Shown here one piece after another: positions 3,783 to 26,466 of a stretch of DNA of 64,000 nucleotides (positions are counted from its first letter, which is position 1; each line of letters begins with the position of its first letter). The position numbers and the translations under genes were made by a program. The notes beneath the pieces are model-generated. The model did no database searches, was not told where the DNA came from, and was given only the letters and a program-made list of their open reading frames with translations. Source of the DNA: Clavaria fumosa (lineage: Eukaryota; Basidiomycota; Agaricomycetes; Agaricales; Clavariaceae); assembly GCA_951802425.1 (NCBI GenBank), contig OX637800.1, positions 186,001 to 250,000 on the forward strand, read 5' to 3'.

Positions 3783-3905
3783 TCTGTGGAAGCCTGCAAC
3801 CTTGTCACAACTTTTGTGTCAGTGATGTAGTGGGAGGTCACAACATTTACAAACAACCCTGTGTTTGGCAGGAATTGCTGGTCCCCAGTGTAAAAGATGT
3901 CTGAA

Positions 3906-5952: not shown

Positions 5953-6294
5953 CACATAGTTCAGTCGGATATTCTAGTATACAACGGGATACCGGACACT
6001 GCAAATCCCCTGTATATAACGGGGTACCGGATTCCGCCAGAGATATCTGATTTTCTAGTAATATATGTGGCCGGCGGAGGATATCCTTGCCAGGATAACC
6101 ATGGGTTCAGCGAATTAAATAGGATATTCTTGACCGGATAACCTCAGGTCCAGCAAAATTGGATAGGGTATCCGTGACTGGATTGAATCCAGGCCACCAA
6201 ATTAAATAGGATATCCTTAACTGGATTGAATCCAAGCAACCATAATAAATAGGATATCCATGACTGAAGAAAATCCAGGCCACCAAATTAAATG
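5953..6294 (+). repeat. Left terminal inverted repeat, high-identity outer part
   Basis: This includes a unique cap (5953-6078) and the first divergent 43-bp units. The cap differs from the right cap at three positions only (TCTAG/TCCAG, CCAGAG/CCGGAG, GGCGGA/GGTGGA, each written in the left orientation). The following odd units (one with CCATGGGTTCAGCGAATT, one with CTCAGGTCCAGC, one with GACTGAAGAAAATCC) appear in the same order on the right, which shows shared ends rather than chance satellite similarity. Confidence 0.85.
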
Positions 6295-9200
6295 GAATAT
6301 CCTTGATTGGATTGAATCAGGGATACCATAATAAATAGGATATCCTTGACAGGTTTGAATCCAAGCCAGCAAATTACATAGGATATCCTTGACTGGTTTA
6401 AATCCAAGCCACCAATTTAAATAGGTTATCCTTGACTGGTTTCAATCCAAGGTACCAAATTAAATAGGATATCATATCCTTGACTGGATTGAATCCAAGC
6501 CACCAAATGAAATAGGATATCCATCAATCAATCACATCCAGGCTACCAAATTAAATAGGATATCCTTGATTGGATTGAATCCAGGCAGATATATTAAATA
6601 GGATATCCTTGACTGGTGTGAATCCAAGCCACCAAATTTAATAGGATATCCTTGACAGGTTTGAATCCAAGCCACCACATTAAATAGGATATCCTTGACT
6701 GGTTTGAATCCAAGCCACCAAATTAAATAGGATATCCTTAACTAGTTTGAATCCAAGCCAACAAATTAAATAGGATATCCTTGACAGGTTTGAATCCAAT
6801 CCACCAAATTAAATAGGATATCCTTGACTGGTTTGAATCCAGGCCAACAAATTAAATAGGATATCCTTGACTGGTTTGAATTGAAGCCACCAAATTAAAT
6901 ATGATATCCTTAACTAGTTTGAATCCAAGCCAACAAATTAAATGGGATATCCTTGACTGGTTTGAATCCAATCCACCAAATTAAATAGGATATCCTTGAC
7001 TGGTTTGAATCCAAGCCAACAAATTAAATAGGATATCCTTGACTGGTTTGAATCCAAGCCACCAAATTAAATAGGATATCCTTAACTAGTTTGAATCCAA
7101 GCCAACAAATTAAATGGGATATCCTTGACTGGTTTGAATCCAATCCACCAAATTAAATAGGATATCCTTGACTGGTGTGAATCCAATCCACCAAATTAAA
7201 TAGGATATCCTTGACTGGTTTGAATCCAAGCCACCAAATTAAATAGGATATCCTTAACTAGTTTGAATCCAAGCCAACAAATTAAATGGGATATCCTTGG
7301 CTGGTTTGAATTGAAGCCACCAAATTAAATAGGATATCCTTAACTAGTTTGAATCTAAGCCAACAAATTAAATGGGATATCCTTGACTGGTTTGAATCCA
7401 ATCCACCAAATTAAATAGGATATCCTTGACTGGTTTGAATCCAAGCCACCAAATTAAATAGGATATCCTTAACTAGTTTGAATCCAAGCCAACAAATTAA
7501 ATAGGATATCCTTGACTGGTTTGAATCCAAGCCACCAAATTAAATAGGATATCCTTAACTAGTTTGAATCCAAGCCAACAAATTAAATGGGATATCCTTG
7601 ACTGGTTTGAATCCAATCCACCAAATTAAATAGGATATCCTTGACTGGTGTGAATCCAATCCACCAAATTAAATAGGATATCCTTGACTGGTTTGAATCC
7701 AAGCCACCAAATTAAATAGGATATCCTTAACTAGTTTGAATCCAAGCCAACAAATTAAATAGGATATCCTTGACTGGTTTGAATCCAAGCCACCAAATTA
7801 AATAGGATATCCTTAACTAGTTTGAATCCAAGCCAACAAATTAAATGGGATATCCTTGACTGGTTTGAATCCAATCCACCAAATTAAATAGGATATCCTT
7901 GACTGGTTTGAATGCAGGCCACCAAATTAAATAGGATATCCTTGACTGGTTTGAATGCAGGCCACCAAATTAAATAGGATATCCTTGGCTGGTTTGAATT
8001 GAAGCCACCAAATTAAATAGGATATCCTTAACTAGTTTGAATCTAAGCCAACAAATTAAATGGGATATCCTTGACTGGTTTGAATCCAATCCACCAAAGT
8101 AAATAGGATATCCTTGACTGGTTTGAATCCAAGCCAACAAATTAAATAGGATATCCTTGACTGGTTTGAATCTAGGCCAACAAATTAAATAGGATATCCT
8201 TGACTGGTTTGAATGCAGGCCACCAAATTAAATAGGATATCCTTGGCTGGATTGAATTGAAGCCACCAAATTAAATAGGATATCCTTATCTAGTTTGAAT
8301 CCAAGCCAACAAATTAAATAGGATATCCTTGACTGGTTTGAATCCAAGCCAACAAATTAAATGGGATATCCTTGACTGGTTTGAATCCAAGCCAACAAAT
8401 TAAATGGGATATCCTTGACTGGTTTGAATCCAATCCACCAAATTAAATAGGATATCCTTGACTGGTTTGAATCCAAGCCACCAAATTAAATAGGATATCC
8501 TTAACTAGTTTGAATCCAAGCCAACAAATTAAATGGGATATCCTTGGCTGGTTTGAATTGAAGCCACCAAATTAAATAGGATATCCTTAACTAGTTTGAA
8601 TCCAAGCCAACAAATTAAATGGGATATCCTTGACTGGTTTGAATCCAATCCACCAAATTAAATAGGATATCCTTGACTGGTTTGAATCCAGGCCAACAAA
8701 TTAAATAGGATATCCTTGACTGGTTTGAATGCAGGCCACCAAATTAAATAGGATATCCTTGGCTGGATTGAATTGAAGCCACCAAATTAAATAGGATATC
8801 CTTATCTAGTTTGAATCCAAGCCAACAAATTAAATAGGACATCCTTGACTGGTTTGAATTGAAGCCACCAAATTAAATAGGATATCCTTAACTAGTTTGA
8901 ATCTAAGCCAACAAATTAAATGGGATATCCTTGACTGGTTTGAATCCAATCCACCAAAGTAAATAGGATATCCTTGACTGGTTTGAATCCAAGCCAACAA
9001 ATTAAATAGGATATCCTTGACTGGTTTGAATCTAGGCCAACAAATTAAATAGGATATCCTTGACTGGTTTGAATGCAGGCCACCAAATTAAATAGGATAT
9101 CCTTGGCTGGATTGAATTGAAGCCACCAAATTAAATAGGATATCCTTATCTAGTTTGAATCCAAGCCAACAAATTAAATAGGATATCCTTGACTGGTTTG

Positions 9201-10089
9201 AATCCAAGCCAACAAATTAAATGGGATATCCTTGACTGGTTTGAATCCAAGCCAACAAATTAAATGGGATATCCTTGACTGGTTTGAATCCAATCCACCA
9301 AATTAAATAGGATATCCTTGACTGGTTTGAATCCAAGCCACCAAATTAAATAGGATATCCTTAACTAGTTTGAATCCAAGCCAACAAATTAAATGGGATA
9401 TCCTTGGCTGGTTTGAATTGAAGCCACCAAATTAAATAGGATATCCTTGACTGGTTTGAATCCAAGCCAACAAATTAAATAGGATATCCTTGACTGGTTT
9501 GAATCCAGGCCAACAAATTAAATAGGATATCCTTGACTGGTTTGAATGCAGGCCACCAAATTAAATAGGATATCCTTGGCTGGATTGAATTGAAGCCACC
9601 AAATTAAATAGGATATCCTTATCTAGTTTGAATCCAAGCCAACAAATTAAATAGGATATCCTTGACTGGTTTGAATTGAAGCCACCAAATTAAATAGGAT
9701 ATCCTTAACTAGTTTGAATCCAAGCCAACAAATTAAATGGGATATCCTTGACTGGTTTGAATCCAGGCCACCAAATTAAATAGGATATCCTTGGCTGGTT
9801 TGAATTGAAGCCACCAAATTAAATAGGATATCCTTAACTAGTTTGAATCCAAGCCACCAAATGAAATAGGATATCCTTGACTGGTTTGAATTGAAGCCAC
9901 CAAATTAAATAGGATATCCTTAACTACTTTGAATCCAAGCCAACAAATTAAATGGGATATCCTTGACTGGTTTGAATCCAATCCACCAAATTAAATAGGA
10001 TATCCTTGACTGGTGTGAATCCAGGCCACCAAATTAAATAGGATATCCTTGACTGGTTTGAATCAAGGCCACCACATTACATAGGATAT
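6079..10089 (+). repeat. 43-bp satellite array, left arm (about 93 units)
   Basis: Each unit begins with the palindrome GGATATCC, followed by TTGACTGGTTTGAATCC, a GCCACC or GCCAACA block and AATTAAATA. Units differ at a few fixed positions (CTGG/CTAG, CCACC/CAACA, AATAGG/AATGGG), giving a few subtypes. Higher-order repeats exist: the block around 8041 recurs at 8901, exactly 860 bp (20 units) later. No ORF survives. The array is flanked by the element cap on the left and the 804-aa gene's 3' end on the right. Confidence 0.95.
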
Positions 10090-10181
10090 TTTGCATCTCT
10101 GGCAACTGTCATGTGATTCACTTTATGTACGTGGTTACTGTCCACAATATTTCCATGTACTTCATTGATAAGTAGCATATT

Positions 10182-12956
10182 TCAAGTCGCAGTTCCCACT
10201 TTGACTCTTTTTGCACCTATCACTGCCTCTTTTCCTTGGTCTCTTCCTCTCCTTAGTGATTTATTCCTGTGCTTTGTTAATAGTTGTAATCACAATTATT
10301 TGAGATAGACTCACAGGCCTCGAGCCAATGGAATCAGTTTGAAAACAGCTGAAATTTCTCGTACCATTGTGGTCCAGTCGACCTTGTCGTCGTCTTTCAG
10401 CGTCAATCCCCACGTCTTCATTCCTACCATAACCATCGCAATACCTGCGAGCCCTGCCCCACACCAGTCAGTCAGGATGAGCGCATCTGCATCGCGCAGA
10501 ACTCCATGTGGCATTATTTGTTGCCACCAGTTGGCCATGTCGTCTGCAATCCCCGAAAAGTCTTGTGTGTCATCCCAGTTACGAGCTTGGCGTGCTTGAC
10601 TCCAGTTCCTGAGTGATTCAGGAACTGCAACCTGTCGATTCTCCAATTTTAATGGAGTCCCTCCAAGGCTCCCCAAAGCTGTCTCAGCGGCAATCCATGC
10701 CTCACATAACGCATACCAATCATTGCCAAGGCTTTGTACGTCATGGTGACCCAGACCCATATCCTGTGATGCCCGTTGGATCAAAGATGGAAGGCTGCTG
10801 AGCTTAAATGGTCGAGGCTTCAGAGTCCGCATAACACCCTGAGAGGTTTGCAATGCGTTGGCTTCCAGTCTAAATTTTCATTTAGACTTAAAAGAGACAG
10901 AACAAATAAATTCTTACGTTTTAACACTAGCAGACAAGTAAGCAGCAGCTTGGGTCATTGCATCCCACAGTGGAAGCTCAGCATTGAGACAATATCCTGG
11001 TGTATTTGGCGCAATAGAGTCAGGCTCAGTGAAAAGGATTTCGCTGAGTTGTTTGAGTCCGAGTCCTAGGCCGAGCAATATCCTTTCGATGAACCCAGGT
11101 GGTGCCACTGAGTTTGGCAAAGAGCCTCTCCAAGACGATGCCCTGATCCAATCAGAAAAGGCAACAGCACTGTCCGGATGTTCAAGGTCTGAAGAGAAAA
11201 ATTCCTTCGGTAGCCATTCGTTGTCAAATGTCCAGCAGGCGAAGGTTGCTGGGATGAGACGGCTGGTGGTTCCTGGACGCTGCCACAGACTCAGATACTG
11301 ACCCTCAAAAGACAAATAAACATACCGCATATTGGAGAAGCTTGAGTGCATGGACGTAGTCTTGTTGATTTGTTAGTTTCTTCAGGTATGCAAGACGGTT
11401 GACGGCTGTTGCTGGAGAGCCTGGGGCAGGCTCGAATCCAACTACTTTCTTGCCCTTGTCAACTGTCAGCGCTCTCTCAGACAGCGCGTCTGTCCCCTTT
11501 GCCTCCGGCTCTGCGTCCTTGTCAGCGGCGTCTGGACCATCATCTAACACTTCATTTCCCACATCTGAATCCATACCCAACCTGATGAATGTCAAAGGCC
11601 TCAGGCCTTGCTGCTGTTTCGTGTACCAGTAAGAATACAAGGCAATTGCCTCAGTCTTGGGCATGTATGAAGGATCTTGAAGGCGGCTGTCTGGCGGAAT
11701 GCCATCCTTTACAAATTCTTCAGGACTGGCAGCGATTCTTTTCCATGGAACAAGTGCAGTTTGCTTTTGAACCACTGAAAATGATATAAGTCATGATTCA
11801 GAAGTGAGAAAAAAATCTTACAGTAGACAGCCTTCACAAATTCATGAATCACGTCCTTCAAAGAAGGAAGTGAGACGTCAAGTGGGAGTTTCCCAAGGAG
11901 GGGGTAGCCAGCATTGTCGTAGTTCAGCTTCCCCCAAGATCTGTCGTCTTCTTGATAATTATCTGGATGATAATTAATACCAGACAACTTAGTGAAATAA
12001 ACTACTTACTATTTCCCAAAGACGCATTGTATCTGCACCAGCTGGGCCAAATTTTCCCAGTTTTCCAATCCGCACATGCCTTGGTGAATTTTTGCCCTTT
12101 GTTGCTCGTTTCGAACCTTAGACATAGATTAGCATGGAGAGACAGCAGACAAAGCAAAAATTACTTTGAGCAAATCGCCTGACCCTCCTCATCCTCAAAT
12201 GACGTGAGCATGAAGACATGTACCCCCATCTTGCGGTACACATCGTCCATGAATTGTGTGACAACTTTATATAAGTCTTTCTCGGCCATCCTAAACAGGA
12301 ATGAGAAGGGGAGAATGTCACAGATATAAAATACTCACTCCCTCTGCAGATCGTGAGGCCATGCACCTGAATTCCAAGCGTGTGCTTGGTCTGTACATTG
12401 TTTCCTGTCCGCTTCGGAAAGGCCATTCAACACTTTCGTGAGTGCTGGCTGATATGCCGCAAATGGTGTCCGGCCCTCCTCGACCAACCTCGTTACTTCC
12501 TGCTGCACTTCCTCTTGATAAACTCGTCCAACTACTCGTCTCAGGTTCCATTTACGCCCCCACACCGACCTCTCATTATTCTTATCTTCCCCCTCAACAT
12601 CATCATCACTCCCATTGTTGCCATCACCTTGGCCATTTCCATCATCAGCATCATCTCGACTGCGAGACATTGGGTGACCCCCTGATACTCGTTTGGCTCT
12701 CGCATTTTTGAACCATGTTTGAACAGCCTACTGAGTTTTTAGTCCAAAAAAATGTAATTACTTGTCAATTTACCTTTGAGAGATCCAGAGGCAGCTCAGG
12801 CAGCCGTTTTCCCTTGGAAACCCGTTGCTGATGAGCCTCCCGCAACTGCTGCACAGTAGTTCTGATGCGATCTGACCGCTCCTTACCCTTTGTGGCAAGC
12901 CACATTGGGAAGGCATTTTCTAGGATAGGAATATAGAGATCGATAGCCCAAGGCAT
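10182..12956 (-). CDS. 804-aa cargo gene of the KDZ element, agaricomycete family of unknown function
   Basis: Nine exons keep one frame: 12956-12774, 12727-12339, 12290-12165, 12116-12010, 11962-11822, 11774-11326, 11297-10918, 10869-10315 and 10266-10182. Most introns are 46-48 nt GT-AG; their sum gives 805 codons. The start is the first Met after an inverted-repeat arm; an in-frame GTG/ATG-less extension reaches 13067 inside that arm. Near residue 62 is a helix-turn-helix-like AVQTWFKNARAKR, then an acidic Asp/Gly/Asn patch, a block with MDDVYRKMGVHVFML and FTKACADWKTGKIWP, a central PWKRIAASPEEF block, and a Trp-rich C-terminal region. The last exon adds a basic tail (KSLRRGRDQGKEAV) that could be a nuclear signal. 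One odd spot: the splice near 11298-11325 implies a 28-nt intron; otherwise a 52-nt intron with a weak donor, or a frameshift, is needed. DNA binding is inferred, not shown. Confidence 0.65.
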
Positions 12957-12997
12957 GCCTGACTTAGCTTTGAGGCAGGGAGGCAGGAGGCAGAGGT

Positions 12998-13451
12998 GGA
13001 AATATTTTAAACGAACGATCACGTGACCGTTGGATCCCCGCGCGACACGGTCACATGGTCTGACCACGTTGCATAATCCAGTGCTCGTATTTAAATATTG
13101 AGGGAGAAATTAGAAATTTCATCTTGGACAATCTACCCAAATTAAATCTGTGATCATTTTGTCTCACTAAAACTAAGCTTCAAAATGCCTGTGTAAGCCT
13201 GCAACTTCGTCGCAACCTTTGGGTCAGTGGTGGGAGGTCACAACATTTACAAACAACCCTGTGTTGGCAGGGATTGCCCCCATATCATGTGCAACGTGGT
13301 CAGACCATGTGACCGTGGGAGGTCACAACATTCACAAACAACCCCGTGTTTGGCAGGGATTGCCCCCATATCATGTGCAACGTAGTCAGACCATGTGACC
13401 GTGTCGCGCGGGGATCCAACGGTCACGTGATCGTTCGTTTAAAATATTTCC
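12998..13451. repeat. 76-bp inverted repeat around a nested repeat insertion
   Basis: 12998-13073 and 13376-13451 are reverse complements with one mismatch in 76. Each arm carries GGTCACGTGATCG or its complement, so E-box-like CACGTG occurs in both. The 302-bp spacer contains a copy of the dispersed repeat seen at 3232-3370 and 3783-3905 (13083-13270) and an 86-bp direct duplication (starts near 13230 and 13315). The arms sit directly upstream of the 804-aa gene on the minus side, so they may form its promoter region. Confidence 0.75.
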
Positions 13452-13687
13452 AACTCCGACCGCTTCGACGCTCATCTCTTTCTCCTTAACCACTACTACT
13501 GTCTTCTTTCCTCGAACTCGTCGACTCTCTTGACTCACAGGTATGTATTTTATTTTATCTTTTATGTAGCCTTAGTAGACGGTGGCCTTAGTAGACAAAT
13601 GACCGGATGCATACGGTCATTTGTCTACTAAGGCTACCTTAGATACATAAACATCTCTTTTGCAGTCTTTTGGTCTGGGGGTAGGGA
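13452..13687. other. Short spacer with a perfect hairpin
   Basis: 13452-13560 is pyrimidine-rich, with TTGACTCACAG|GTATGT at 13533-13546 resembling a 5' UTR exon-intron junction, although no ORF follows it. The rest is the hairpin region described separately. Confidence 0.35.
13585..13634. repeat. Perfect 21-bp palindromic hairpin
   Basis: Left arm 13585-13605 (GCCTTAGTAGACAAATGACC then G) and right arm 13614-13634 are exact reverse complements around the loop GATGCATA. A partial extra copy of the arm, GTAGCCTTAGTAGAC, lies just upstream at 13566-13580. Its plan matches the hairpin at 3024-3061 (CTTAGT..., ...TGACC). Confidence 0.8.
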
Positions 13688-14020
13688 GTGAGCGCCTCGG
13701 TGCGCTCACTCCCAAGACCCTCGGTGGTCTTTTTCGATCTGGGGGCAGGGGGTGAGCGCCTCGGTGCACTCACTCCCAAGACCCTCGGTGGTCTTTTTCG
13801 ATCTGGGGGCAGGGAGTGAGCGCCTCGGTGCGCTCACTCCCAAGACCCTCGGTGGTCTTTTTCGATGGTCTTTTTCGATCTGGGGGCAGGGGGTGAGCGC
13901 CTCGGTGCGCTCACTCCCAAGACCCTCGGTGGTCTTTTTCGATCTGTGGGCAGGGAGTGAGCGCCTCGGTGCGCTCACTCCCAAGACCCTCGGTGGTCTT
14001 GATGATCTGGGGCAGGGCTG
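13688..14020. repeat. 64-bp minisatellite, five units, each with an internal hairpin
   Basis: Units start with GTGAGCGC at 13688, 13752, 13816, 13893 and 13957 (period 64, once 77 because of a 13-bp partial duplication). Each contains GTGAGCGC-CTCGGT-GCGCTCAC (one copy has GCACTCAC), a short stem-loop, then CCAAGACCCTCGGTGGTC. Long open frames on both strands here are by-products of a period that disfavours stops, not genes. Confidence 0.85.
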
Positions 14021-14061
14021 GGCGCCTCGGCGCATGCCACAGACCTTCGGCAGTCTTGAAG

Positions 14062-14460
14062 ATCTAGGGCCGCAGGCACTTTGGTGCGTTTCCATTTCCC
14101 ATTTTACTCATATTGACACTCTCTATCCTTCTGGCAAAGCGTGTCTTGACACATGGGTCTTCGCACCCGACACTTGTATTTGTTGGGAATGTGGGTGTTT
14201 CGTGCGTTTCCATTTACTGTTTTACTGACATTGACACTGACTATCCCTCCAGCACAATCACGTCCTCGACACATCCCGACTCACCGGTCTTCACACCCGA
14301 CACACGGGTCTTCGCACCTGACACTTGTCTGGAGCAGGGAATGTGGGTGTTTCGTGTGTTTCCATTTACTATTTTACTGACATTGACACTGACTATCCCT
14401 CCAGCACAATCACGTCTTCGACACATCCCGACTCACCGGTCTTCACACCAAACATCCGCT
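14062..14460. repeat. Tandem repeat of about 130-150 bp, three diverged copies
   Basis: The block TTTCCATTT(A/C)C...TTTTACTGACATTGACAC...TATCCCTCCAGCACAATCACG followed by GACACATCCCGACTCACCGG occurs at about 14189 and 14340, with a more diverged copy from 14089. It is non-coding repeat DNA upstream of the PHD gene. Confidence 0.7.
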
Positions 14461-14727
14461 GACAAGTTGTCCTTTTTTTGTCTTTTGTGCGCTGTAGCAG
14501 TAGTTATTCATGTCGTAGTAGGGGAGGGGTAGCGGGGATATTCAATGCCGGCCACATTGAGTATCCTTTCTGCCCTGACCATATACTTTTTTCATGTGAC
14601 TTGTAATAATTACTTGTAATTTGTCGAACTCTCATACCCGTTATAAGGCGAGATTCTGCTCCTACGTGTAAGTCACGTGACCACCGAGTGGCTGAGCGGC
14701 TAAGCACTTTGACCTCGAACCGTCACA
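14461..14727. promoter_or_regulatory. Upstream region of the PHD-finger gene
   Basis: This 267-bp stretch separates the tandem repeats from the ATG at 14728. It includes GTCACGTGACC (near 14672), the same CACGTG core found in the 76-bp inverted repeat. A TGGCTGAGCGGC segment near 14690 looks like a tRNA A box, but no matching B box lies at the right distance. Promoter function is inferred from position only. Confidence 0.3.
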
Positions 14728-16381
14728 ATGCCAAGAACGAAACAATCGGCATCCAGGTCAACTGGTGCTCCATGTGTGAGAGTGACCCTTCACCCGTCTG
14801 CCATCAAACAAAATGCGCAGCCTATCGCTCAACCGATTGGAATTAGGGTGAGTCCTCGACTCTTCTGTCGATTTGATCGAGCTGATCAAGGGACACAGAC
14901 AGGTGACAGAGCCCCAAATGATGAAGTCAGACTACTTAACTCCATCTAATATAGTACTGACCTTTTGCAGTGGTGCTGCAGCTGCGGCGATGGCGGAAAT
15001 CTCTTGGACTGCGATTTTTGTGAGTGAGCCGTGTGCAGCAAATGCCTGGATCTTTCCGGAGGCTCCAAGCTCATCAAAGAGCCCGACGTCAATTTTTTTT
15101 GCATGGGCTGTCATTTAGGCTCAGAGAATCGAGCTGAGCCCTTCTATGTAAGTACTGATCTTTATCAACACAAATTTATTGACACAGAATGTTGTATTAC
15201 AGCCTCTCTACCGCAACGGCGAGCCCATCAAAAGTGTCATTGGGCATATCAAGCCCACGACACTAGGGGGCAATTACGCATGGCAAAACACGAACTCGTT
15301 GGCCATCGTCAACATTCGACTGTGCACGATCCCAACCCAAGGCAATCCATACATTTCCGTCGCCAACACCTTGGCCGGCTGGTTCGCCAGCATATCTGAA
15401 AGAAGGATGTTATTTACCAAAGAGGTAGTCTTGGATATTGATGTGGCGAATCCAAGATCATTGGCCAAGCATCAGAGAGTTCTCAAGGATATCATCAAAA
15501 GCTTTCAACAGTGAGTCCGTTTTATTACGATTGAACGCAGCTGATTGCTCCAAACAGATTTGGAGTCCGGAGGCTCGTCGTATTCCTGTTTACCCACGCC
15601 AATCCCGAGAATGGTGACCTCCATTGTGCTAATAACTCAGGAATCCAAGTTGAAAGCGTAAGCTCATCCATACCATCAAATGGTCGCTTACTGATGTAGT
15701 CTACCTTTTCAAAAGTTTCTGGCTCAAATTTTTGGGCAAGATCTCCTTAAGTTTGCACAGGAAGTACATTCACTTCTTGTCCTCGAGGTTTGTGGCGGAG
15801 TTTGGGAGAACGCGGCGTCGTGCAAAGCAGTGACGGATTTTGCTCAAAGGTATGTCTTGGCCCCACCCCTGCTTCCAATGCTGATGATGCCCAGTGCATA
15901 TTTCAATCACGTCATTGGCTTTGGCCAAGCCAATTTCTTTCCCCATCTAGCTATTCCATTCCTCACAAAACTTATCATCAAAAATTTCATCGAATATTTC
16001 TCGATCCTCCGAATTCTGCCAGATCTTCTCAAGGAGGAGGAGGGTCTTGGTGCCCACACCTCCATCCTTCTTTTGTCTCACAGATTCGCCTTGGAATACA
16101 TATGGGTTCACCACCAACTCCGCCCATTTGGTGATGCCGTCGCCCTCCAGTGCCCGAAGTGTTACGCAATTCGGACCCTCACATTCAAGCTACTGGACAG
16201 CAAATCGGGCAGTTACCAGGCAAGCTGTCCTTGTGGTTGGGCCGACAAGAAACCCTCTGGCTTGGGTGACGCAACCTTGCCAAAGGGCCCGACGGGATGG
16301 GCCACTCGCCTGTTGTACGGAACTCCGGCCATTGTGGATGGTATATGGAAGTTGCCACGTTTGATGTATAATATTGTCTGA
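14728..16381 (+). CDS. PHD-like zinc-finger protein with a histone H3 tail-like N-terminus (one premature stop)
   Basis: Seven exons fit in frame: 14728-14847, 14899-14925, 14971-15147, 15203-15510, 15558-15657, 15716-15849 and 15895-16381, giving 451 codons. Residues 1-15 read MPRTKQSASRSTGAP, echoing the H3 tail: R2, T3, K4, Q5, A7, S10, T11 and G12 are kept (H3 numbering), while K9 is Arg. A zinc finger follows with four CxxC pairs (Cys 51 or 52/54, 63/66, 71/74, 93/96), PHD- or ADD-like but with Cys where PHD has His. A central region contains VVFLFTHANPENGDLHC. The C-terminus has a possible zinc ribbon (CPKC ... CPC). Codon 68 is TGA (15025-15027), probably from CGA, so this copy would be truncated. 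Similar proteins recur in agaricomycete genomes; a chromatin role is inferred. The gene lies 603 bp upstream of the transposase on the same strand. Confidence 0.72.
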
Positions 16382-16983
16382 GCCATGTACAAGTTTGTCT
16401 TGTTTGCCTCCATGCTACCCATGTCTACCTACGAAATTCCAATGCTACCCGTGTCTACCTACGCAATTCCAAGATCACCTTCAGTGAAAACAAGATAGGC
16501 CATCGCTTCGCTCTGGCAGTTTTCTATTTATCCAGCAGTTTTCTAATAATCTGAAGTCCTGTATTATATACATTACATTAGTAGTGCTATGTTCACCACT
16601 ACGTAGGCAGATTAGGAGGTCACATCGTCTTTGGGGAAGGAGGACGCAGGCATGCTCTATGTAAAAAACGCAGCGTCTCATGTTACGAAAGACACACTAC
16701 ATCACGAAATGGACTACAACATGGCATTAGGCAACAACCGAACGACCTCCGAACAGTACGGGACGTTGAACACATGAAATGGCAGACAATATGGAACAGG
16801 ATGAAAACAGCCTGCGCCGCACCTACCTCACACACGAACTCCGACTTGCACAGTCAGCACCAAGGATGACATGCAGGAGTACACAAACACAAACATGAAC
16901 ACACAAAATCATGTGACTGATCACATGTTGAGATGTTGAGAGCACATCATGTGACACTGACAGTATTCTGAACGTCACTCAAG
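16382..16983. promoter_or_regulatory. Spacer between PHD gene and transposase
   Basis: It contains a tandem 32-bp duplication at 16412-16474 (CCATGCTACCC...GTCTACCTACG) and, about 60 bp before the transposase ATG, the palindrome CATGTGA-CTGA-TCACATG (16909-16926) plus another ATGTGAC. These repeats could be protein-binding sites in the transposase promoter. That function is inferred from position. Confidence 0.35.
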
Positions 16984-19900
16984 ATGCGGTCAGTCATTGG
17001 GAAAGAAGGACGAGCAGTAGAGAGAACATACACAATAAAAAAGCTCTCAAGGGGGAGGAAGGTCAGGAAAAAAGATCAGCAGATCACTCATAACACTAGA
17101 GCAGGTTCTCAATCCCCATCTCAACCTAAAAAACGAGCAAGGGAGCCCAGCCATCTGTATGAAAATTTGGATTTTGGGAAGGACAACATACTGCCTGGAC
17201 AGGAAAGTTCAGATTCAAATTCAAAAAGGCCAAGAAAGGGGAAGGTAGTTGAATTAATTCTGACCAATTTTGATTTACATTGACATTCTGCAGACACAAA
17301 ATGATTTCCTTCAAGAATGGAAGGACAATGCATGCAATCTGCATCTCTCTGAATTAATGGAGTTTGAAGCTCCTCCTGAAAACCAGAACTGCATGCTCTG
17401 TCACAAACCCTTGGCTTTATACCGGTGTTTTGACTGTTTGTACAGCACCCAACTCGTCTGCCTTGATTGCTGTCTTCTGCAACATCAACGCCATCCATTC
17501 CATCAAATCAAAAAATGGACAGGAACATTTTTTGACAGGAGCGACCTTGGAGATATGGGGCTTTCCATCAATCTTGGCCATGGCGGCAATTTGTGCCCTG
17601 GATACCATGCTGAACTTCCTCACACTGTGATTGATGAACGAAGAATCTGGGATGGGGATGAGTCTGATGATGATGAGTCTCTGGAAGAACTGCTGCCAGG
17701 GGTGGACAGCTTTCAACAGACTCATGGAATAACATTCATAACCAGCTCTGGTGTTTTCAAGCGTCCAGTGAAATGGTGCATCTGTCCAAATGCACCATCT
17801 AATCATCTCCAGCTGCTTCGGATGCGCTTTTTCCCTGCCAGTCTTCAGAGGCCCTCAACTGCATTCACATTTGATGTCCTCAAGTTGTTTCATATCGATG
17901 TTATGGAGTGCAAAACTGCTGCACGAAGCTTCTACTCAAAGCTGCAGAGAATGACTAATAGTGGATTTCCCTCTTCGATCCCAGTAAGTAGCAAAACCTC
18001 CTGATTAGATACAACATCCTAACCCCAAAGGTTTTCAGGATCGTTACCGTGAACTCATGAGGGTCTCAAGACAGTGGAGGCATCTGGAAATGCTTAAGAG
18101 GGCAGGATTTGCACATCATCCTGAGCAAGAGCAGACACCTGGTGACCTTGCACTTTTTTGCCCTACCTGCCCTCAACCTGGAATAAATGTGGCAGTTGAA
18201 GAGGTGAAAGAATCCATGAATCCGTAAGTTCATTAAATTTTTTTCCAAATGCAGAAATTGATTAAAAATTACAGTAGCATTTATCACCGATCTATCGTAG
18301 CTGATGGAAATTTTAAACTGGAGCATGTGAAGTCGAAATGCTCTGAGGGTGATGTCTCCTTAAGTGATGGAAGAGGTTTTATGGTCCAGGATAAACCCTA
18401 CCAAGCTCACATTGCTGCATCTGTCGAAGTAAAACAGGTGACCCTTCAAGTTGGACACCATTCAGGATATTTGTTGACAACATTCTATAGAAACCAAGAT
18501 GTCACAATCATCGAGCAATTACCCAGGTGAACGGTCACAGTGGACGAAAACGAGATCACCTACGAGCAACTGGAGGCGGAGTATGTGCTTGTGCACGTCA
18601 TGGATGCTTTTATCCACACAGCTTCGTTGATTTTCAGAAGGGAGAGAGGTAAGACTTATAATCTTCAAGGTGTCTGGGCTAAGTTTTGTTTTTTCAGGCA
18701 GGCAAACATTGATTATTCACTTTGCCAAGCCCTTCAGAGAGTAAATGTCATCAAGAAGGTGCTTTTTGTCTATGACATAGGATGTGAATGGGGAAGACAC
18801 TTTCGGGACCGAGTTGAAGCAAGCAAATACCTGCATCTCGATGATGGCCTGAAGATTATCACAACAGTAGGGAAATTTCACTTGGGAGCACATATCAAGG
18901 AGTGCTTTGCACTTTTCTCCTTGAACTTTGTTCAAGGTGTGGGGCAATTGGATGGCGAGATTTTGGAAAGTCTCTGGTCAACCCTTGGCAAAGCAGCCAG
19001 CCATACCAGAGGAATGTCTCAAGCTCATCGACAGGAGGTTCTCGACAACCACATGAATGATTCTAACTGGAAGAAGATGATCAAAGCATGTAAGTATGTG
19101 TTCTTATGGTCATAGATATTTTTTTGATGTGTTTAAAACAAAGCACATTCAATCCTTACGAAGTGGAAGAATGCGCAACAGCAACAGGCAGAAACTAAAT
19201 CAGCTCTGGATGAATTGACAGCTAGAATCAGCCATACATGGGTATCAGAGTGGAGGCAATTGGAGGAAAGAGCAATGACTGAGCGAGGAGATTTGCTCAG
19301 AATATATGATGTTGCAAAAACAAATGGTCGGCCATTTCTTACCCCTTTTTGCTTTTGATTGAAGTGCTTTGAAGCCCCTAGCTGTGCAGAAATTGAACTA
19401 GAGCTATCACAGAAGGAACGGAACACAGGTGATTTATCTGGTGGTGCCAGTCTTCTAGCTTTAGGCATACAGTTGGAAAATGAACAGTAAGTTCTCATTA
19501 TGACGTGTATTTCTTTGCGATTTACATTCACATACCACTAGAGCATCATTAGCAGCATATACAAAGACACTGAGAAAACCTTCAACATCCCAGCGAAGAG
19601 AGCTTGAGGAGAAAAGAAGGCGCCTTCAAATCAGGATTACAAAATATGAGAAATGCTGGTCTGACTCGACTCTCTTCATGGGCAAGGCTATTGACTTGGG
19701 AGAAAACCATCTATTGTACCAGGAGAATGAAAGCGAGATCGAGGACAATGATCTGGGCACAGCTGATGAGTGGGAGGATGACAGCAATGGGCTTCACCCC
19801 GAGGCGATGACTATATTCCTTCCATCAAACATGGGTGGCGAGAATCACATGGAAAGTGGTTTGGAAGACATGGCTGCATGTGAAGCAAAACTCCGGGTTG

Positions 19901-20620
19901 GACAAATGAATGATGCCCTTGAAAAACTTAGGATTGCCTTGGGGGAGAAGTCTCTTATATTCAGAGAAAAGGTGGGCTCATTGATCATTTTAATACCAGC
20001 ACTGAGATATCAATTGTTCAGGTCCAGAAGTGCAAGAGTCAACAACTTGCTACCAGAGCTTGGAGTCAAGTGCACTCCATGGAGTCACGGGTACAGCAGG
20101 CAGTCAGGGAATATAAAAGGGCTCGAGCTGCAGCCCAGAGACTGGGGTCCCTGGATCCAAAGTATCAGGACATCTCAAAAGATGACTTGAAAATGCCTGG
20201 GGACGTGATCGAAGAAAACAGGATTGGTCAGCGATCAGAGAAACTATCCTGGTTGTGGAGGTTGGATAGTGGGATGAACAAAGGAGAATGCAGTGAGAGA
20301 ATGAAGGAATGTGAGTGGATGGTGTGGTATGTCATGAATGAAAAATTGACAAATGATTAGTCTACAGAGTGGTTTGGTTGAGAGCAAGTGCAAGGTTCAA
20401 TCGCTGGGATGAGGAAGTCACTTTGCTTCAGCAGGAAATGAAGTGGACAGCCGCATTTTTCAAGCACAAGAAAGATCAATGGGAGCAAATAGCAATGAAT
20501 GAAAGAAATGTAAGGAGTGGGCTGGCATGTTATGCTCACAAGCAGGAGGTGGTATGGGAAAGATTTGAAGGACATGCAAGGAAGATTTTTAGAAGTAGTT
20601 GTCAACTGGAGCCAATCTAA
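16984..20620 (+). CDS. KDZ-family transposase with CxC zinc cluster, intact
   Basis: Eleven exons join in frame without a stop: 16984-17244, 17294-17983, 18039-18223, 18275-18437, 18491-18648, 18698-19089, 19144-19326, 19375-19486, 19542-19971, 20022-20310 and 20361-20620, giving 1,040 aa, a usual KDZ length. The basic N-terminus is followed by a Cys/His cluster (residues 120-157: CMLC, CFDC, CLDCC, HQRHPFH), the CxC2-type domain. The RNase H-fold catalytic core shows VADGNF (D389), a CHNHRAITQ and CARHGCF.PHSFVDFQKGER block, YDIGCEW (D512) and LDGEILESLW (E573 or E576), the expected DDE residues. The C-terminal part has FLPSN and LRVGQMNDALEKLRIALG motifs typical of the family. It should cut and rejoin the element ends in the nucleus. 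An apparent TGA at 19358-19360 falls inside a predicted 48-nt intron. Confidence 0.92.
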
Positions 20621-20700
20621 TGAGCCTTCTTCATAGTGCAGTTGATAGGTCTACTGTGAAGTGCAGGAATATCTCTGCTGGACTGGTGTCATACAGGACA

Positions 20701-23700
20701 TGGATATCCCAATATCTCCAATGATATCCTATTTAATGTAGTGGCTTGGATTCAAACCAGTCACGGATATCCTATTGACTTTGGCAGCTTGGATTACAAC
20801 CGTTCAAGGATATCCTATTTAATTTGGTGGTCTGGATTGAAACTAGTCAAGGATATCCTATTTATTTTGGTAGCCGTGATTCAAACTAGGCAAGGATATC
20901 CTATTCATTTTGGTAGCCTAGATTTGAACTAGTCAAGGATATCCTATTTATTTTGGTAGCCTGGATTCAAACTAGTCAAGGATATCCCATTTATTTTGGT
21001 ACCTTGATTCAAACTAGGCAAGGATATCCTATTTATTTTGGTAGCCTTGATTCAAACTAGGCAAGGATATCCTATTTACTTTCGTAGCCTTGATTCAAAC
21101 TAGGCAAGGATATCCTATTTATTATGGTAGCCTTGATTCAAACTAGTCAAGGATATCCTATTTATTTTGGTAGCCTTGGTTCAAACTAGGCAAGGATATC
21201 CTATTTATTTTGGTAGCCTTGGTTCAAACTAGGCAAGGATATCCTATTTACTTTGGTAGCCTAGATTGGAACTAGTCAAGGATATCCTATTTATTTTGGT
21301 AGCCTGGATTCAAACTAATCAAGGATATCCCATTTATTTTGGTAGCCTTGATTCAAACTAGGTAAGGATATCCTATTTACTTTGGTAGCCTGGATTCAAA
21401 CTAATCAAGGATATCCTATTTACTTTGGTAGCCTGGATTCAAACTAATCAAGGATATCCTATTTACTTTGGTAGCCTAGATTGGAACTAGTCAAGGATAT
21501 CCTATTTATTTTGGTAGCCTTGATTCAAACTAGGCAAGGATATCCTATTTACTTTCGTAGCCTTGATTCAAACTAGTCAAGGATATCCCATTTATTTTGG
21601 TAGCCTTGATTCAAACTAGGCAAGGATATCCTATCTATTTTGGTAGCCTTGATTCAAACTAGGCAAGGATATCCTATTTATTATGGTAGCCTTGATTCAA
21701 ACTAGGCAAGGATATCTTATTTATTTTGGTACCTTGATTCAAACTAGGCAAGGATATCCTATTTACTTTGGTAGCCTAGATTGGAACTAGTCAAGGATAT
21801 CCTATTTATTTTGGTAGCCTGGATTCAAACTAATCAAGGATATCCCATTTATTTTGGTAGCCTTGATTCAAACTAGGCAAGGATATCCTATTTACTTTGG
21901 TAGCCTTGATTCAAACCAGTCACGGATATCCTATTGACTTTGGCGGCTTGGATTACAACCAGTCAAGGATATCCTATTTACTTTGGTAGCCTAGATTGGA
22001 ACTAGTCAAGGATATCCTATTTATTTTGGTAGCCTTGGTTCAAACTAGGCAAGGATATCCTATTTACTTTGGTAGCCTAGATTGGAACTAGTCAAGGATA
22101 TCCTATTTATTTTGGTAGCCTGGATTCAAACTAATCAAGGATATCCTATTTACTTTGGTAGCCTGGATTGGAACTAGTCAAGGATATCCTATTTATTATG
22201 GTAGCCTTGATTCAAACTAGGCAAGGATATCTTATTTATTTTGGTACCTTGATTCAAACTAGGCAAGGATATCCTATTTACTTTGGTAGCCTAGATTGGA
22301 ACTAGTCAAGGATATCCTATTTATTTTGGTAGCCTGGATTCAAACTAATCAAGGATATCCCATTTATTTTGGTAGCCTTGATTCAAACTAGGCAAGGATA
22401 TCCTATCTATTTTGGTAGCCTTGATTCAAACTAGGCAAGGATATCCTATTTATTATGGTAGCCTTGATTCAAACTAGGCAAGGATATCTTATTTATTTTG
22501 GTACCTTGATTCAAACTAGGCAAGGATATCCTATTTACTTTGGTAGCCTAGATTGGAACTAGTCAAGGATATCCTATTTATTTTGGTAGCCTGGATTCAA
22601 ACTAATCAAGGATATCCCATTTATTTTGGTAGCCTTGATTCAAACTAGGCAAGGATATCCTATTTACTTTGGTAGCCTTGATTCAAACCAGTCACGGATA
22701 TCCTATTGACTTTGGCGGCTTGGATTACAACCAGTCAAGGATATCCTATTTACTTTGGTAGCCTAGATTGGAACTAGTCAAGGATATCCTATTTATTTTG
22801 GTAGCCTTGGTTCAAACTAGGCAAGGATATCCTATTTACTTTGGTAGCCTAGATTGGAACTAGTCAAGGATATCCTATTTATTTTGGTAGCCTGGATTCA
22901 AACTAATCAAGGATATCCCATTTATTTTGGTAGCCTTGATTCAAACTAGGCAAGGATATCCTATCTATTTTGGTAGCCTTGATTCAAACTAGGCAAGGAT
23001 ATCCTATTTATTATGGTAGCCTTGATTCAAACTAGGCAAGGATATCTTATTTATTTTGGTACCTTGATTCAAACTAGGCAAGGATATCCTATTTACTTTG
23101 GTAGCCTAGATTGGAACTAGTCAAGGATATCCTATTTATTTTGGTAGCCTTGATTCAAACTAGGCAAGGATATCTTATTTATTTTGGTACCTTGATTCAA
23201 ACTAGGCAAGGATATCCTATTTATTTTGGTAGCCTAGATTGGAACTAGTCAAGGATATCCTATTTATTTTGGTAGCCTTGATTCAAACTAGTCAAGGATA
23301 TCCCATTTATTTTGGTACCTTGATTCAAACTAGGCAAGGATATCCTATCTATTTTGGTAGCCTTGATTCAAACTAGGCAAGGATATCCTATTTATTTTGG
23401 TAGCCTTGATTCAAACTAGTCAAGGATAACCCATTTATTTTGGTACCTTGATTCAAACTAGGCAAGGATATCCTATCTATTTTGGTAGCCTTGATTCAAA
23501 CTAGGCAAGGATATCCTATTTATTATGGTAGCCTTGATTCAAACTAGGCAAGGATATCTTATTTATTTTGGTACCTTGATTCAAACTAGGCAAGGATATC
23601 CTATTTATTTTGGTAGCCTAGATTGGAACTAGTCAAGGATATCCTATTTATTTTGGTAGCCTGGATTCAAACTAGTCAAGGATATCCCATTTACTTTGGT

Positions 23701-25210
23701 AGCCTTGATTCAAACTAGGCAAGGATATCCTATTTACTTTGGTAGCCTAGATTGGAACTAGTCAAGAATATCCCATTTATTTTGGTAGCCTGGATTCAAA
23801 CTAGTCAAGGATATCCTATTTATTTTGGTAGCCTTGATTCAAACTGGGCAAGGATATCCTATTTATTTTGGTAGCCTAGATTGGAACTAGTCAAGGATAT
23901 CCTATTTATTTTGGTAGCCTTGATTCAAACTAGGCAAGGATATCCTATTTACTAGTCAAGGATATCCTATTTATTTTGGTAGCCTGGATTCAAACTAATC
24001 AAGGATATCCCATTTATTTTGGTAGCCTTGATTCAAACTCGGCAAGGATATCCTATTTACTTTGGTAGCCTGGATTGGAACTAGTCAAGGATATCCTATT
24101 TATTTTGGTAGCCTTGATTCAAACTAGGCAAGGATATCCTATTTATTATGGTAGCCTTGATTCAAACTAGTCAAGGATATCCTATTTATTTTGGTAGCCG
24201 TGATTCAAACTAGGCAAGGATATCCTATTTATTTTGGTAGCCGTGATTCAAACTAGGCAAGGATATCCTATTTATTTTGGTAGCCTAGATTTGAACTAGT
24301 CAAGGATATCCTATTTATTTTGGTAGCCTGGATTCAAACTAGTCAAGGATATCCCATTTATTTTGGTACCTTGATTCAAACTAGGCAAGGATATCCTATT
24401 TACTTTGGTAGCCTAGATTGGAACTAGTCAAGAATATCCCATTTATTTTGGTAGCCTAGATTGGAACTAGTCAAGGATATCCTATTTACTTTGGTACTGG
24501 ATTCAAACTAGTCAAGGATATCCCATTTATTTTGGTAGCCTGGCTTCAAACTAGTCAAGGATATCCTATTTATTTTGGTAGCCTTGATTCAAACTAGGCA
24601 AGGATATCCTATTTATTATGGTAGCCTTGATTCAAACTAGTCAAGGATATCCTATTTATTTTGGTAGCCGTGATTCAAACTAGGCAAGGATATCCTATTT
24701 ATTTTGGTAGCCTAGATTGGAACTAGTCAAGGATATCCTATTTATTTTGGTAGCCTGGATTCAAACTAGTCAAGGATATCCCATTTATTTTGGTAGCCTT
24801 GATTCAAACTAGGCAAGGATATCCTATTTACTTTGGTAGCCTAGATTGGAACTAGTCAAGAATATCCCATTTATTTTGGTAGCCTGGATCCAAACTAGTC
24901 ACGGATATCCTATTTCCTTTGGTAGCCTAGATTGGAACTAGTCAAGGATATCCTATTTACTTTGGTACTGGATTCAAACTAGTCAAGGATATCCCATTTA
25001 ACTTGGTGGCCTGGATTTTCTTCAGTCATGGATATCCTATTTATTATGGTTGCTTGGATTCAATCCAGTTAAGGATATCCTATTTAATTTGGTGGCCTGG
25101 ATTCAATCCAGTCACGGATACCCTATCCAATTTTGCTGGACCTGAGGTTATCCAGTCAAGAATATCCTATTTAATTCGCTGAACCCATGGTTATCCTGGC
25201 AAGGATATCC
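20701..25210 (-). repeat. 43-bp satellite array, right arm (about 105 units)
   Basis: On the plus strand the units read GGATATCCTATTTATTTTGG, then TAGCC..GATTCAAACTAG and GCAA or TCAA. The reverse complement is the same 43-bp unit as the left arm, but with arm-specific changes (CTAG for CTGG, GGCTACC for AGCCACC, AAAATAAATA for AATTAAATA). Some units are 42 bp (GGTACCTT instead of GGTAGCCTT). A block containing CAGTCACGG...TTGACTTTGGCGGC recurs at 21901 and 22673, a higher-order period of about 772 bp. There is no gene inside. Confidence 0.95.
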
Positions 25211-25336
25211 TCCACCGGCCACATATATTACTAGAAAATCAGATATCTCCGGCGGAATCCGGTACCCCGTTATATACAGGGGATTTGCAGTGTCCGGTAT
25301 CCCGTTGTATACTGGAATATCCGACTGAACTATGTG
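24992..25336 (-). repeat. Right terminal inverted repeat, high-identity outer part
   Basis: This is the reverse complement of 5953-6294. The cap occupies 25211-25336 and has the same 126-bp length as the left cap. It marks the right end of the KDZ element; the sequence beyond 25336 differs from that left of 5953. Confidence 0.85.
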
Positions 25337-25419
25337 TCTGAAGACGTCTATGGGTAAATGATTTCATGAATTGATTAAGGCTAAAGGCAGGTCATATTGG
25401 ACTAACCGGCGGACAAGTG

Positions 25420-26430
25420 TCAATGCAAAGACCTTCCATATTGGTTGAAGTCGGTGAAGAACGCTGTAAAGTTTTCCAAACCCGCCACGGAAAACACGCA
25501 TGGGGGGTTTCTTCCCCAGGCAGAGGCCCCTTCAAATTTTGGAAGTGGGGGGCTGGAAATTGATATGAGTAGTGAGCATTTGTTACAGTAACAGAGAGAG
25601 GACACACCCAAAAAAAGGAGGGGCCTGTGATCATCGTCGCGCGGGTTGGTTACTTTACTTGAGAGTTGCAACAGCGCTGATAAAGTGAAAGTAGATGCGG
25701 CAAGTCCAGCATCCTTGAAAATCCGGCGATCCCCTTGCTGGGATGTTCGTGGCGCAATCAACATCATTGGGGAGTCGAAGAAACTGCCAGCTGAGACGGA
25801 GCTGTTGGAGTGAGCAATGATAATTTTGTTATTTGTCAGGGAATGGAGAATCTGATTGTTTGCTTCCTTCCACAGATCCGTCGCGTTGCGCAAAGAGAGG
25901 GTGCAGGTGAGATTTTGCGCATCCAAAACCTTGAGCACTTGCATAATCTCTTCCAAAGTGAAACGGTAGGTATGTGACTCGCCACAGTCATCTGACAACT
26001 GAGAAGACAGTAAATAAAGGCTATCTTGAGGAATGAAAGTACCAACGGTGAACGGTAATAAGACAGCTAGGAAATCCGTACTTGTGGCAGGCCCGGACTG
26101 GTTGGGATGATTATTGTGGTTTCCTCTCCGCCCTCCACCCCTGAAAGTGCCTCGCGATCCCCTGTGCATGCGCGCAATTGATTTACTCCTCCTCCTTACC
26201 ACATCTGAGGACGAGGGATTTGGACTGAAAATGAAAGCAGATATGGGTTGCGAGGGTGCCCGGGAACGTGCAGAGGGAAGTCCCGCCGCTTGGCGGGGCA
26301 CGTGCGTGGAGACGTCCGCTGTTACAACAGTGGAACGAGCCGGTGCGCTATGAACCATCAGTAATGAGCAAAAGACCAAGGGCACGAGAAGCATCAGAGT
26401 ACTGACAGCATCGGTCCATGAGAAATCCAT
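25420..26430 (-). CDS. Hypothetical protein with signal-peptide-like N-terminus
   Basis: The start is placed at the Met of MDFSWTDAVSTLM because a hydrophobic run (LMLLVPLVFCSLLMVHSA) follows at once, as in a signal peptide or anchor; the frame stays open upstream to 26466. A Ser/Pro/Arg-rich linker with an RG-rich patch (GSRGTFRGGGRRG) leads to a likely 48-nt intron (25999-26046). Then comes a compact region with LEEIMQVLKVLDAQNLTCTL and NNKIIIAHSNSSVSAGSFFDS that looks like a conserved fungal secreted-protein fold of unknown function. Codons after about 25650 are less convincing, so the true 3' end may be earlier. It lies just outside the right end of the KDZ element. Confidence 0.45.
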   Translation of the reverse strand: MDFSWTDAVSTLMLLVPLVFCSLLMVHSAPARSTVVTADVSTHVPRQAAGLPSARSRAPSQPISAFIFSPNPSSSDVVRRRSKSIARMHRGSRGTFRGGGRRGNHNNHPNQSGPATSTDFLAVLLPFTVGTFIPQDSLYLLSSQLSDDCGESHTYRFTLEEIMQVLKVLDAQNLTCTLSLRNATDLWKEANNQILHSLTNNKIIIAHSNSSVSAGSFFDSPMMLIAPRTSQQGDRRIFKDAGLAASTFTLSALLQLSSKVTNPRDDDHRPLLFLGVSSLCYCNKCSLLISISSPPLPKFEGASAWGRNPPCVFSVAGLENFTAFFTDFNQYGRSLH

Positions 26431-26466
26431 GAGGAAGCGCAAATGCAAGTCATGTTTGTGCTCCAA

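What the first reader, a model, noticed from the sequence alone, without database searches (positions are those of the whole stretch)
5953..25336. A 19.4-kb KDZ transposon whose ends are inverted satellite arrays
Seen: matching 126-bp caps in inverted orientation with three mismatches, the same irregular order of first units, then about 4.0 and 4.5 kb of 43-bp repeats on the two sides, framing a transposase and two further genes. Known: KDZ elements in basidiomycetes carry accessory genes. Inference: satellite-built ends of this length are unusual and may be an undescribed end architecture.
Basis: partly seen in the sequence, partly recalled or inferred. Interest (0 to 1): 0.92.

Follow-up and report, generated by a model that had tools for sequence, protein, structure and literature searches.

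The report
Jumping gene with expanding satellite ends
A fungus, probably a mushroom relative, carries a multi-copy family of large DNA transposons whose two ends have grown into long, length-variable arrays of a short repeat, and a second transposon family in the same genome appears to show the same design with an unrelated repeat.

Summary
The caps are the ends of a repeated KDZ transposon: 44 end matches in the genome form 16 inverted pairs; 13 of 16 pairs have exact 7-bp target-site duplications directly outside the caps; a KDZ exon is listed inside 15 of 16. So the arrays lie inside the mobile unit. The inverted repeat is about 344 bp (98%), followed by arm-specific 43-bp arrays; arms measured from end to core range from about 0.5 to 11.2 kb. 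The palindrome GGATATCC in each unit is nearly invariant. A second KDZ family has 131-bp arrays in an arm whose inverted match lies at the other end, and exact 7-bp duplications in 3 of 3 copies with both ends read. Termini (CA..TG) and 7-bp duplications match Kyakuja.

The window copy is not one clean insertion: its flanks come from two loci, which points to exchange between two elements (or a misjoin). And long inverted ends with tandem repeats are known from Foldback, Galileo, Tetris and Tm1, so this is a new variant: a foldback-like KDZ element. Most likely the units are amplified transposase-binding sites; that step is inferred.

The parts
   Evidence: 338 of 344 positions equal to the right end; cap alignment
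6076..10089 (+). A arm: 43-bp array (93 units counted from offset 123), consensus ATAGGATATCCTTGACTGGTTTGAATCCAAGCCACCAAATTAA
   Evidence: Tandem Repeats Finder 6113-10089; unit count and A-type assignment
10311..12956 (-). accessory gene 1 (9-exon model, 749 aa); only a weak homeodomain match (E 0.08, below cut-off); 29% identity over 30% of the query to Leucogyrophana mollusca BV22DRAFT_1133619
   Evidence: gene model; Pfam; homologue; no internal stop in E2, E3, E5, E6 and the window copy, stops in E1 and E4
14728..16381 (+). accessory gene 2 (6-exon model, 441 codons) with an ATRX-like PHD finger and a C-terminal Cys cluster; interrupted by a stop in this copy, open in E2, E3, E5, E6
   Evidence: models in six copies; ATRX chain 2lbm, E 4.7e-5; homologues P0001-P0003
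16984..20620 (+). KDZ transposase gene, 11-exon model, 1,016 aa, CxC2 plus KDZ domains
   Evidence: 455 proteins at E <= 1e-3, best about 46% identity in Suillus and Leucogyrophana
20719..25213 (-). B arm: 43-bp array (106 units), consensus on the minus strand ATAGGATATCCTTGACTAGTTTGAATCCAGGCTACCAAAATAA
   Evidence: Tandem Repeats Finder 20719-25126
24993..25336 (-). right terminal inverted repeat (344 bp)
3090..5952 (.). left flank: 98% identical to C11:287794-290640, where the sequence runs on without an element (empty site) after ACATAGC
25337..64000 (.). right flank: part of a segmental duplication shared with C2, C3 and C4, where elements E5, E6, E7 sit at the same position (tested at 25337-33336 and 44001-63999; within the latter 61071-63999 matched the three places; 33337-44000 not tested)

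Best explanation
It is one copy of a multi-copy family of KDZ (probably Kyakuja-lineage) cut-and-paste transposons. Shown: defined CA..TG ends, 7-bp target-site duplications, a 344-bp inverted repeat, a CxC2-KDZ transposase, two accessory genes, and subterminal tandem arrays in both arms that lie inside the element. Shown on the assembly as it stands: arm length is hypervariable (about 0.5 to 11.2 kb) and differs several-fold between copies of one and the same insertion that was duplicated with its flanks. Inferred: each unit carries a palindromic recognition site (GGATATCC) for the transposase or a partner protein; the outer 344 bp are the functional minimum; the arrays are amplified copies of that site that grow and shrink by unequal exchange or slippage while the site itself is kept. 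Inferred: the window copy arose by exchange between two elements at different loci, which joined the flanks of the two.
For: 16 inverted cap pairs; 15 of 16 enclose a listed KDZ exon of the 194-aa-frame type, and the 18 such exons listed lie inside a pair (15) or just inside a single cap (3). Exact 7-bp duplications in 13 of 16 pairs; among all pairs of 44 element ends, exact boundary matches of 7 bp or more occurred only in those 13 pairs, in cross-pairs of the duplicated locus, and once between two single ends (10 bp). The six outermost units start at the same offsets (123, 166, 210, 253, 296, 339) in 15 of 15 arms and 13 of 16 further arms. A-type units prevail on the accessory-gene side and B-type on the KDZ side in 15 of 15 arms (B arm of E1 only 4 to 3). 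E5, E6, E7 are one insertion copied by segmental duplication, yet their B arms have 258, 129 and 51 units. GGATATCC positions 99-100% conserved against 92-93% for the rest, with an anchor outside the core; in 13 of 13 arms that had at least 10 scorable units (of 15) the core is among the 4 best of 28 windows, first in 8. The 126-bp cap has 4 GGATATCC-like sites against 0.53 in shuffles, P 0.0005. A second family has a similar design with another palindrome.
Against: No binding or transposition was measured. Complete short arms (about 0.5 kb: A arm of E14, B arm of E16) sit in elements with exact duplications, so long arrays are not needed for insertion, or were lost later. Core conservation could partly reflect recent homogenisation; for the second family the permutation test is weak (P 0.044, 19 units). 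The two Laccaria Kyakuja families described have no inverted repeats. Two of 16 pairs (the window copy and E15) lack matching duplications and E12 has one mismatch. The short B arm of E16 has 2 A-like and 0 B-like units among those scored. The exchange reading of the window copy has no reciprocal product among the ends read.
Confidence: 0.8

Rival explanations
1. The kilobase arrays are neutral: any tandem unit near the end expands by slippage or unequal exchange and the element tolerates it. The units have no role beyond the outermost 344 bp.
For: About 24-fold range of arm length in one family; edges shared between copies while the middle differs; exact duplications around E14 and E16, each with one complete 0.5-kb arm; F237 shares its cap with F277 but has no kilobase array in the one arm read.
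Against: One palindrome is held at 99-100% while the rest of the unit drifts, in 13 of 13 arms scored; a second family amplified a different palindrome in the same place.
Confidence: 0.45
2. The window copy is a misassembly: the 19-kb repeat was used to join the C7 left flank to a segmental-duplication contig. The family is real, but this exact structure is not.
For: Four near-identical copies of the right flank exist and the element is long and repeated; no reciprocal end was found.
Against: 17 contigs for 48.8 Mb suggest long reads (inference); single ends on C2 and C10 share a 10-bp boundary match, hinting that split elements recur, though that too could be a misjoin.
Confidence: 0.3
3. The two arms are unrelated satellites that happen to flank a KDZ gene.
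For: A and B arms have different consensus units (4 of 43 positions).
Against: Inverted caps with 7-bp duplications in 13 of 16 pairs, common register and inverted orientation.
Confidence: 0.01
4. The arrays serve chromatin: they attract or exclude silencing (for instance through the PHD-finger accessory protein), rather than transposase binding.
For: Accessory gene 2 encodes an ATRX-like PHD finger; seven copies diverge mainly by CpG-context transitions, 177 of 234 variants at 5.9% of positions, so copies were probably methylated; the consensus 43-bp units contain no CpG.
Against: No chromatin data; a CpG-free unit may only be the end point of deamination; the F277 consensus unit does contain CpG.
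Confidence: 0.15

Closest known systems
Kyakuja lineage of KDZ (Kyakuja-1_LB, Kyakuja-2_LB of Laccaria bicolor; Kojima 2025, PMC12730594, sections 3.1.1 and 3.2 and passages read)
   Same: 7-bp target-site duplications and 5'-CA..TG-3' termini; large elements with accessory genes; four listed relatives of this transposase (P0050, P0059, P0086, P0117) carry PF12851, the Tet_JBP family (name recalled)
   Different: Those two families have no inverted repeats and carry TET/JBP; this one has 344-bp inverted repeats and satellite arms, and no TET/JBP match appeared in the gene pieces and models scanned
Galileo (P superfamily, Drosophila; Marzo 2013, PMC3688188, abstract and Discussion read)
   Same: Long, internally repetitive inverted ends whose tandem repeats hold extra transposase-binding sites; noted for chromosomal inversions
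   Different: Unrelated THAP-type transposase; ends of more than 1 kb; binding was shown there and only inferred here
Foldback-type elements: Tetris (PMC4079207, passages) and Tm1 (Mutator-like, PMC3169594, abstract)
   Same: Inverted ends of variable length; in Tetris with internal tandem repeats that also built satellite arrays
   Different: Other superfamilies; no transposase is known for Tetris; here arms reach 11 kb and copies keep a transposase gene
Cryptococcus KDZ1-KDZ3 (PMC12810828, passages)
   Same: Mobile fungal KDZ elements with 139-241-bp inverted repeats
   Different: About 9-11 kb, CxC1 rather than CxC2, 4-8-bp duplications, no satellite arms mentioned in the passages seen

Membership tests
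KDZ superfamily | KDZ transposase domain with CxC cysteine cluster | tested here: met
   PF18758 E 6e-30 and PF18803 CxC2 E 1.9e-24, both over cut-off
KDZ superfamily | target-site duplications at both ends | tested here: met
   exact 7 bp in 13 of 16 pairs; E12 one mismatch, E15 and the window copy none
Kyakuja | 7-bp duplications | tested here: met
   the second family also, 3 of 3
Kyakuja | CA..TG termini | tested here: met
   CACATAG..CTATGTG
Kyakuja | absence of inverted repeats (as reported for the two Laccaria families) | tested here: not met
   344-bp inverted repeat, 98%; whether absence defines the lineage is not stated in the sections read, so Kyakuja membership is left as probable only
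Kyakuja | transposase phylogeny | not tested
Zisupton / Dileera | 8-bp duplications (PMC12730594) | tested here: not met
   7 bp
Foldback-type architecture | long inverted ends of variable length with internal tandem repeats | tested here: met
   arms from about 0.5 to 11.2 kb
Galileo-like function | repeat units bind the transposase | not testable with these tools
   only sequence conservation of the core

The most novel reading that the evidence does not exclude
KDZ/Kyakuja transposons have at least twice turned their ends into self-amplifying satellites: palindromic recognition sites next to the end (GGATATCC in one family, GGCC in another) were expanded into kilobase arrays while the site was kept, so the transposon end is itself a fast-evolving satellite, and the long shared arms promote exchange between elements and thereby chromosome rearrangements.
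Probability: 0.45. Interest if true: 0.78.

Novelty: new variant of a known kind. Interest (0 to 1): 0.62.

Why it matters
Foldback-like ends are known in the P and Mutator superfamilies; finding them in KDZ, in two families with unrelated repeats in one genome, suggests convergent evolution of repeat-built ends. The family offers a natural length series (about 10 to 258 units per arm) with near-identical cores, plus a relative of the second family with a related cap and no long array in the one arm read, so the old question whether such repeats help transposition or merely accumulate becomes directly testable. One insertion present in three duplicated copies with B arms of 51, 129 and 258 units could serve as a clock for array turnover. 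It also links a transposon to satellite birth and, if the window copy is not a misjoin, to a large rearrangement.

Tried and rejected
Rejected: separate satellites around a gene (duplications and register). Rejected: E5, E6, E7 and the window copy as four hits on a preferred target; their shared flanks are a segmental duplication (99.4-99.7% over 1 kb; 8 kb, and matched again 36 kb away), so the 13 exact duplications stand for 11 independent sites. Rejected as unsupported: a caspase/CHAT-like reading of accessory gene 2, which rested on motifs recalled by me; no Pfam, NCBIfam or PDB match supports it and the Cys is not aligned in P0003. Led nowhere: an empty site for the duplicated locus (0 matches); a third family, F421 (L061-L062), whose ends could not be defined; the right end of the F277 copy on C6, not found within the stretch read; a first reading frame for accessory gene 2 that was off by two bases (replaced). 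Not run: structure prediction and fold search, because the spliced proteins are not contiguous in the window.
Full report
WHAT WAS CHECKED. The window is C7:186001-250000 of an unnamed 48.76-Mb genome in 17 contigs. The described coordinates are exact ends. The 126-bp caps differ at 3 positions, but the inverted repeat is longer: 338 of 344 positions agree over eight blocks of 43 bp, after which the arms diverge at once. Arrays of 43-bp units follow on both sides.

A TRANSPOSON FAMILY. The cap search scored 40 places out of 76 candidates in its first look; a 34-nt pattern from the end gave 44 places, 22 per strand, with 0 for the reversed control. By position and orientation they form 16 inverted pairs 13.6 to 43.7 kb apart and 12 single ends. 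The KDZ search listed 18 exons of the same 194-aa frame; 15 lie inside pairs (every pair except C11:2265789-2290078, E14) and 3 just inside single caps. The KDZ list was cut, so the missing one is not proof of absence. I read both ends of all 16 pairs (window). Exact 7-bp duplications lie directly outside the caps in 13; E12 has one mismatch, E15 and the window copy have none. As a control, all pairs among 44 ends were compared: exact matches of 7 bp or more occurred only in those 13 pairs, among ends of the duplicated locus, and once (10 bp) between single ends on C2 and C10. Because E5, E6 and E7 are one insertion (below), the 13 stand for 11 independent sites. Ends are CA..TG.

GENES. The transposase model has 11 exons and 1,016 aa, with CxC2 and KDZ domains found in its pieces. 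Its best relatives, about 46% identical over nearly all of the searched residues 150-700, are CxC2-KDZ proteins of Suillus and Leucogyrophana; four listed relatives also carry PF12851 (Tet_JBP, name recalled). Accessory gene 1 (minus strand) has one database relative, in Leucogyrophana mollusca (29% over 30% of the query), on a contig of 28,374 bp; the second-listed KDZ relative, from the same species, lies on a contig of that same length. That suggests, without proving, that the two genes travel together in another genus. Accessory gene 2 has a PHD finger whose best match is ATRX (E 4.7e-5; that this is ATRX's ADD domain is recalled). It is interrupted by one stop in the window copy and in E1, truncated in E4, and open in E2, E3, E5, E6. 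Its ratio of non-synonymous to synonymous change is 0.16-0.29 against E4, which suggests selection, but 0.75-0.97 between E1 and the copies other than E4; ratios for the pairs printed with E1 or E4 are 0.47-0.61 for the transposase and 0.44-0.78 for gene 1, and the transposase pair E10-E3 gives 1.32 on six changes. The gene models are unverified by transcripts; under the transposase model one stop appears in E1, E2, E3 and E5 and two in E4, none in E6 and the window copy.

ARMS. In eight copies (E1-E7 and the window copy) arms were read to the core, the A arm of E1 being split by insertions and left out of the counts. Unit counts are 18 to 93 for A (seven arms) and 16 to 258 for B (eight arms). 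For the other eight pairs 1.5 kb of each end was read: 13 of 16 show exactly the same six first offsets; E14 left is one base off at the sixth, E16 right is shifted by 12, and E15 right shows only two sites. Two complete short arms join the normal core directly: the A arm of E14 (about 0.5 kb) and the B arm of E16 (about 0.5 kb); the B arms of E12 and E15 are about 0.8-0.9 kb. E14 right, E16 left and E15 right do not run into the core in the stretch read; E14 right and E16 left pass into other sequence. Between copies the outer units (up to 15 in order) and the innermost ones are often shared, while the middle differs. A-type units prevail on the accessory-gene side and B-type on the KDZ side in 15 of 15 arms (E1 B arm only 4 to 3). 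In one search the better-filled arms agree; E16 right has 2 A-like and no B-like units scored, against the rule.

SAME INSERTION, DIFFERENT ARRAYS. E5 and E6 share both flanks (99.6-99.7% over 1 kb), E7 shares 120 bp on each side with E5 at 100%, and the right flank is 8 kb of near-identical DNA on C2, C4 and C7, and on C3 with a 3.6-kb insertion. They are copies of one insertion, yet B arms have 258, 129 and 51 units and A arms 24, 38 and 42. Unless the assembly is wrong in the arrays, arm length changes faster than flanks diverge.

THE WINDOW COPY IS A JOIN. Its right flank belongs to that duplication; its left flank is 98% identical to C11:287794-290640, ends exactly at the cap, and on C11 runs on without an element. 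The two flanks carry different target sequences. The simplest history is an element at the C7 locus that exchanged with the element of the duplicated locus. A misjoin over a 19-kb repeat is the main alternative, and no reciprocal product was found among the 44 ends.

WHY BINDING SITES. With an anchor outside it, the core GGATATCC is 99-100% conserved while other positions average 92-93%; it ranks in the top 4 of 28 windows in 13 of 13 arms with at least 10 scorable units, of 15 arms. GGATATCC-like sites are also over-represented in the 126-bp cap (4 against 0.53 in shuffles). In Galileo, tandem repeats in the long ends hold extra transposase-binding sites (PMC3688188, abstract and Discussion). 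The transfer of that function to this element is inference.

A SECOND FAMILY. I sampled two other KDZ families by one locus each. One (F277) has 131-bp arrays about 0.5 kb from its left end. A search with that stretch gave five inverted pairs of matches to the array arm, on C3, C5, C6, C8 and C10; the right arms themselves were not read beyond their tips. Both ends were read for three (C3, C5, C10), and all three have exact 7-bp duplications and related termini (..TTCAGTC..). The 131-bp unit holds four GGCC palindromes 28-37 bp apart; over 19 units they are 99.7% conserved against 93.0% (permutation P 0.044), and the 352-bp cap has 9 GGCC against 0.73 in shuffles. A relative (F237) shares 347 bp of the cap at 90% and has 10 GGCC in its first 500 bp but no kilobase array in the single 3.4-kb arm read. 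The other sampled family (F421) contains tandem repeats, but its ends were not defined. So the design was found in one of the two further families sampled.

KNOWN OR NEW. The two Kyakuja families of Laccaria have 7-bp duplications and CA..TG ends but no inverted repeats (PMC12730594, section 3.2.1). Foldback-like ends occur in P and Mutator elements (PMC3688188, PMC4079207, PMC3169594, parts as stated). Searches for KDZ with 'subterminal' (0 papers), KDZ with 'tandem repeat' and 'terminal inverted repeat' (1 paper, on Ectocarpus, whose passages mention giant KDZ elements with nested insertions but no satellite ends), Kyakuja (12 papers: two of them read in part, ten seen as listing only) and Zisupton (65 papers, 30 listed) turned up no description of satellite arms in KDZ. 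The library holds open-licence papers only, so this is not proof of absence.

LIMITS. No reads, no genomes of relatives, no phylogeny, no functional test. The organism was not identified; that it is an Agaricomycete is inferred from the transposase relatives.

Noticed in passing
window 25337-33336 and 61071-63999; C2:4711918-4719917, C3:226374-237956, C4:4015916-4023915: Near-identical segmental duplication seen over about 38 kb on four chromosomes; spacing of matched blocks differs between copies, so it contains insertions or deletions.
   Followed up: partly
window 4557-5537: Part of a dispersed repeat with dozens of copies, many within tens of kb of contig ends, which looks subtelomeric.
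   Followed up: no
window 45030-45696 and about 45.8-54.8 kb: A 51-bp tandem array beside a repeat with 91-93% copies on C1, C3 and C7; possibly another transposon with a tandem array near its end.
   Followed up: no
window 13230-14449: 64-, 77-, 86-, 141- and 152-bp tandem repeats between the accessory genes, inside the element core; copy number differs between elements.
   Followed up: no
C2:696517 (L049) and C10:156740 (L055): Two single ends on different chromosomes share a 10-bp boundary match, as if one insertion had been split by an exchange or a misjoin; the length is odd for a family with 7-bp duplications.
   Followed up: no
C5:1428481-1443219 with C5:1444587: Element E9 is inserted, with an exact duplication, inside the B array of another copy.
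   Followed up: no
gene regions of E1-E6 and the window copy: 177 of 234 variants between the seven copies are CpG-context transitions although CpG makes up 5.9% of positions, a methylation-decay signature; the 43-bp consensus units lack CpG.
   Followed up: partly
C1:118674/137644, C4:4476528/4457515, C5:67295/86281, C11:2676881/2657875: F237-type KDZ exons lie about 19 kb from a related cap in four places about 67-224 kb from contig ends, which may mean one insertion spread by duplication of chromosome-end regions.
   Followed up: no
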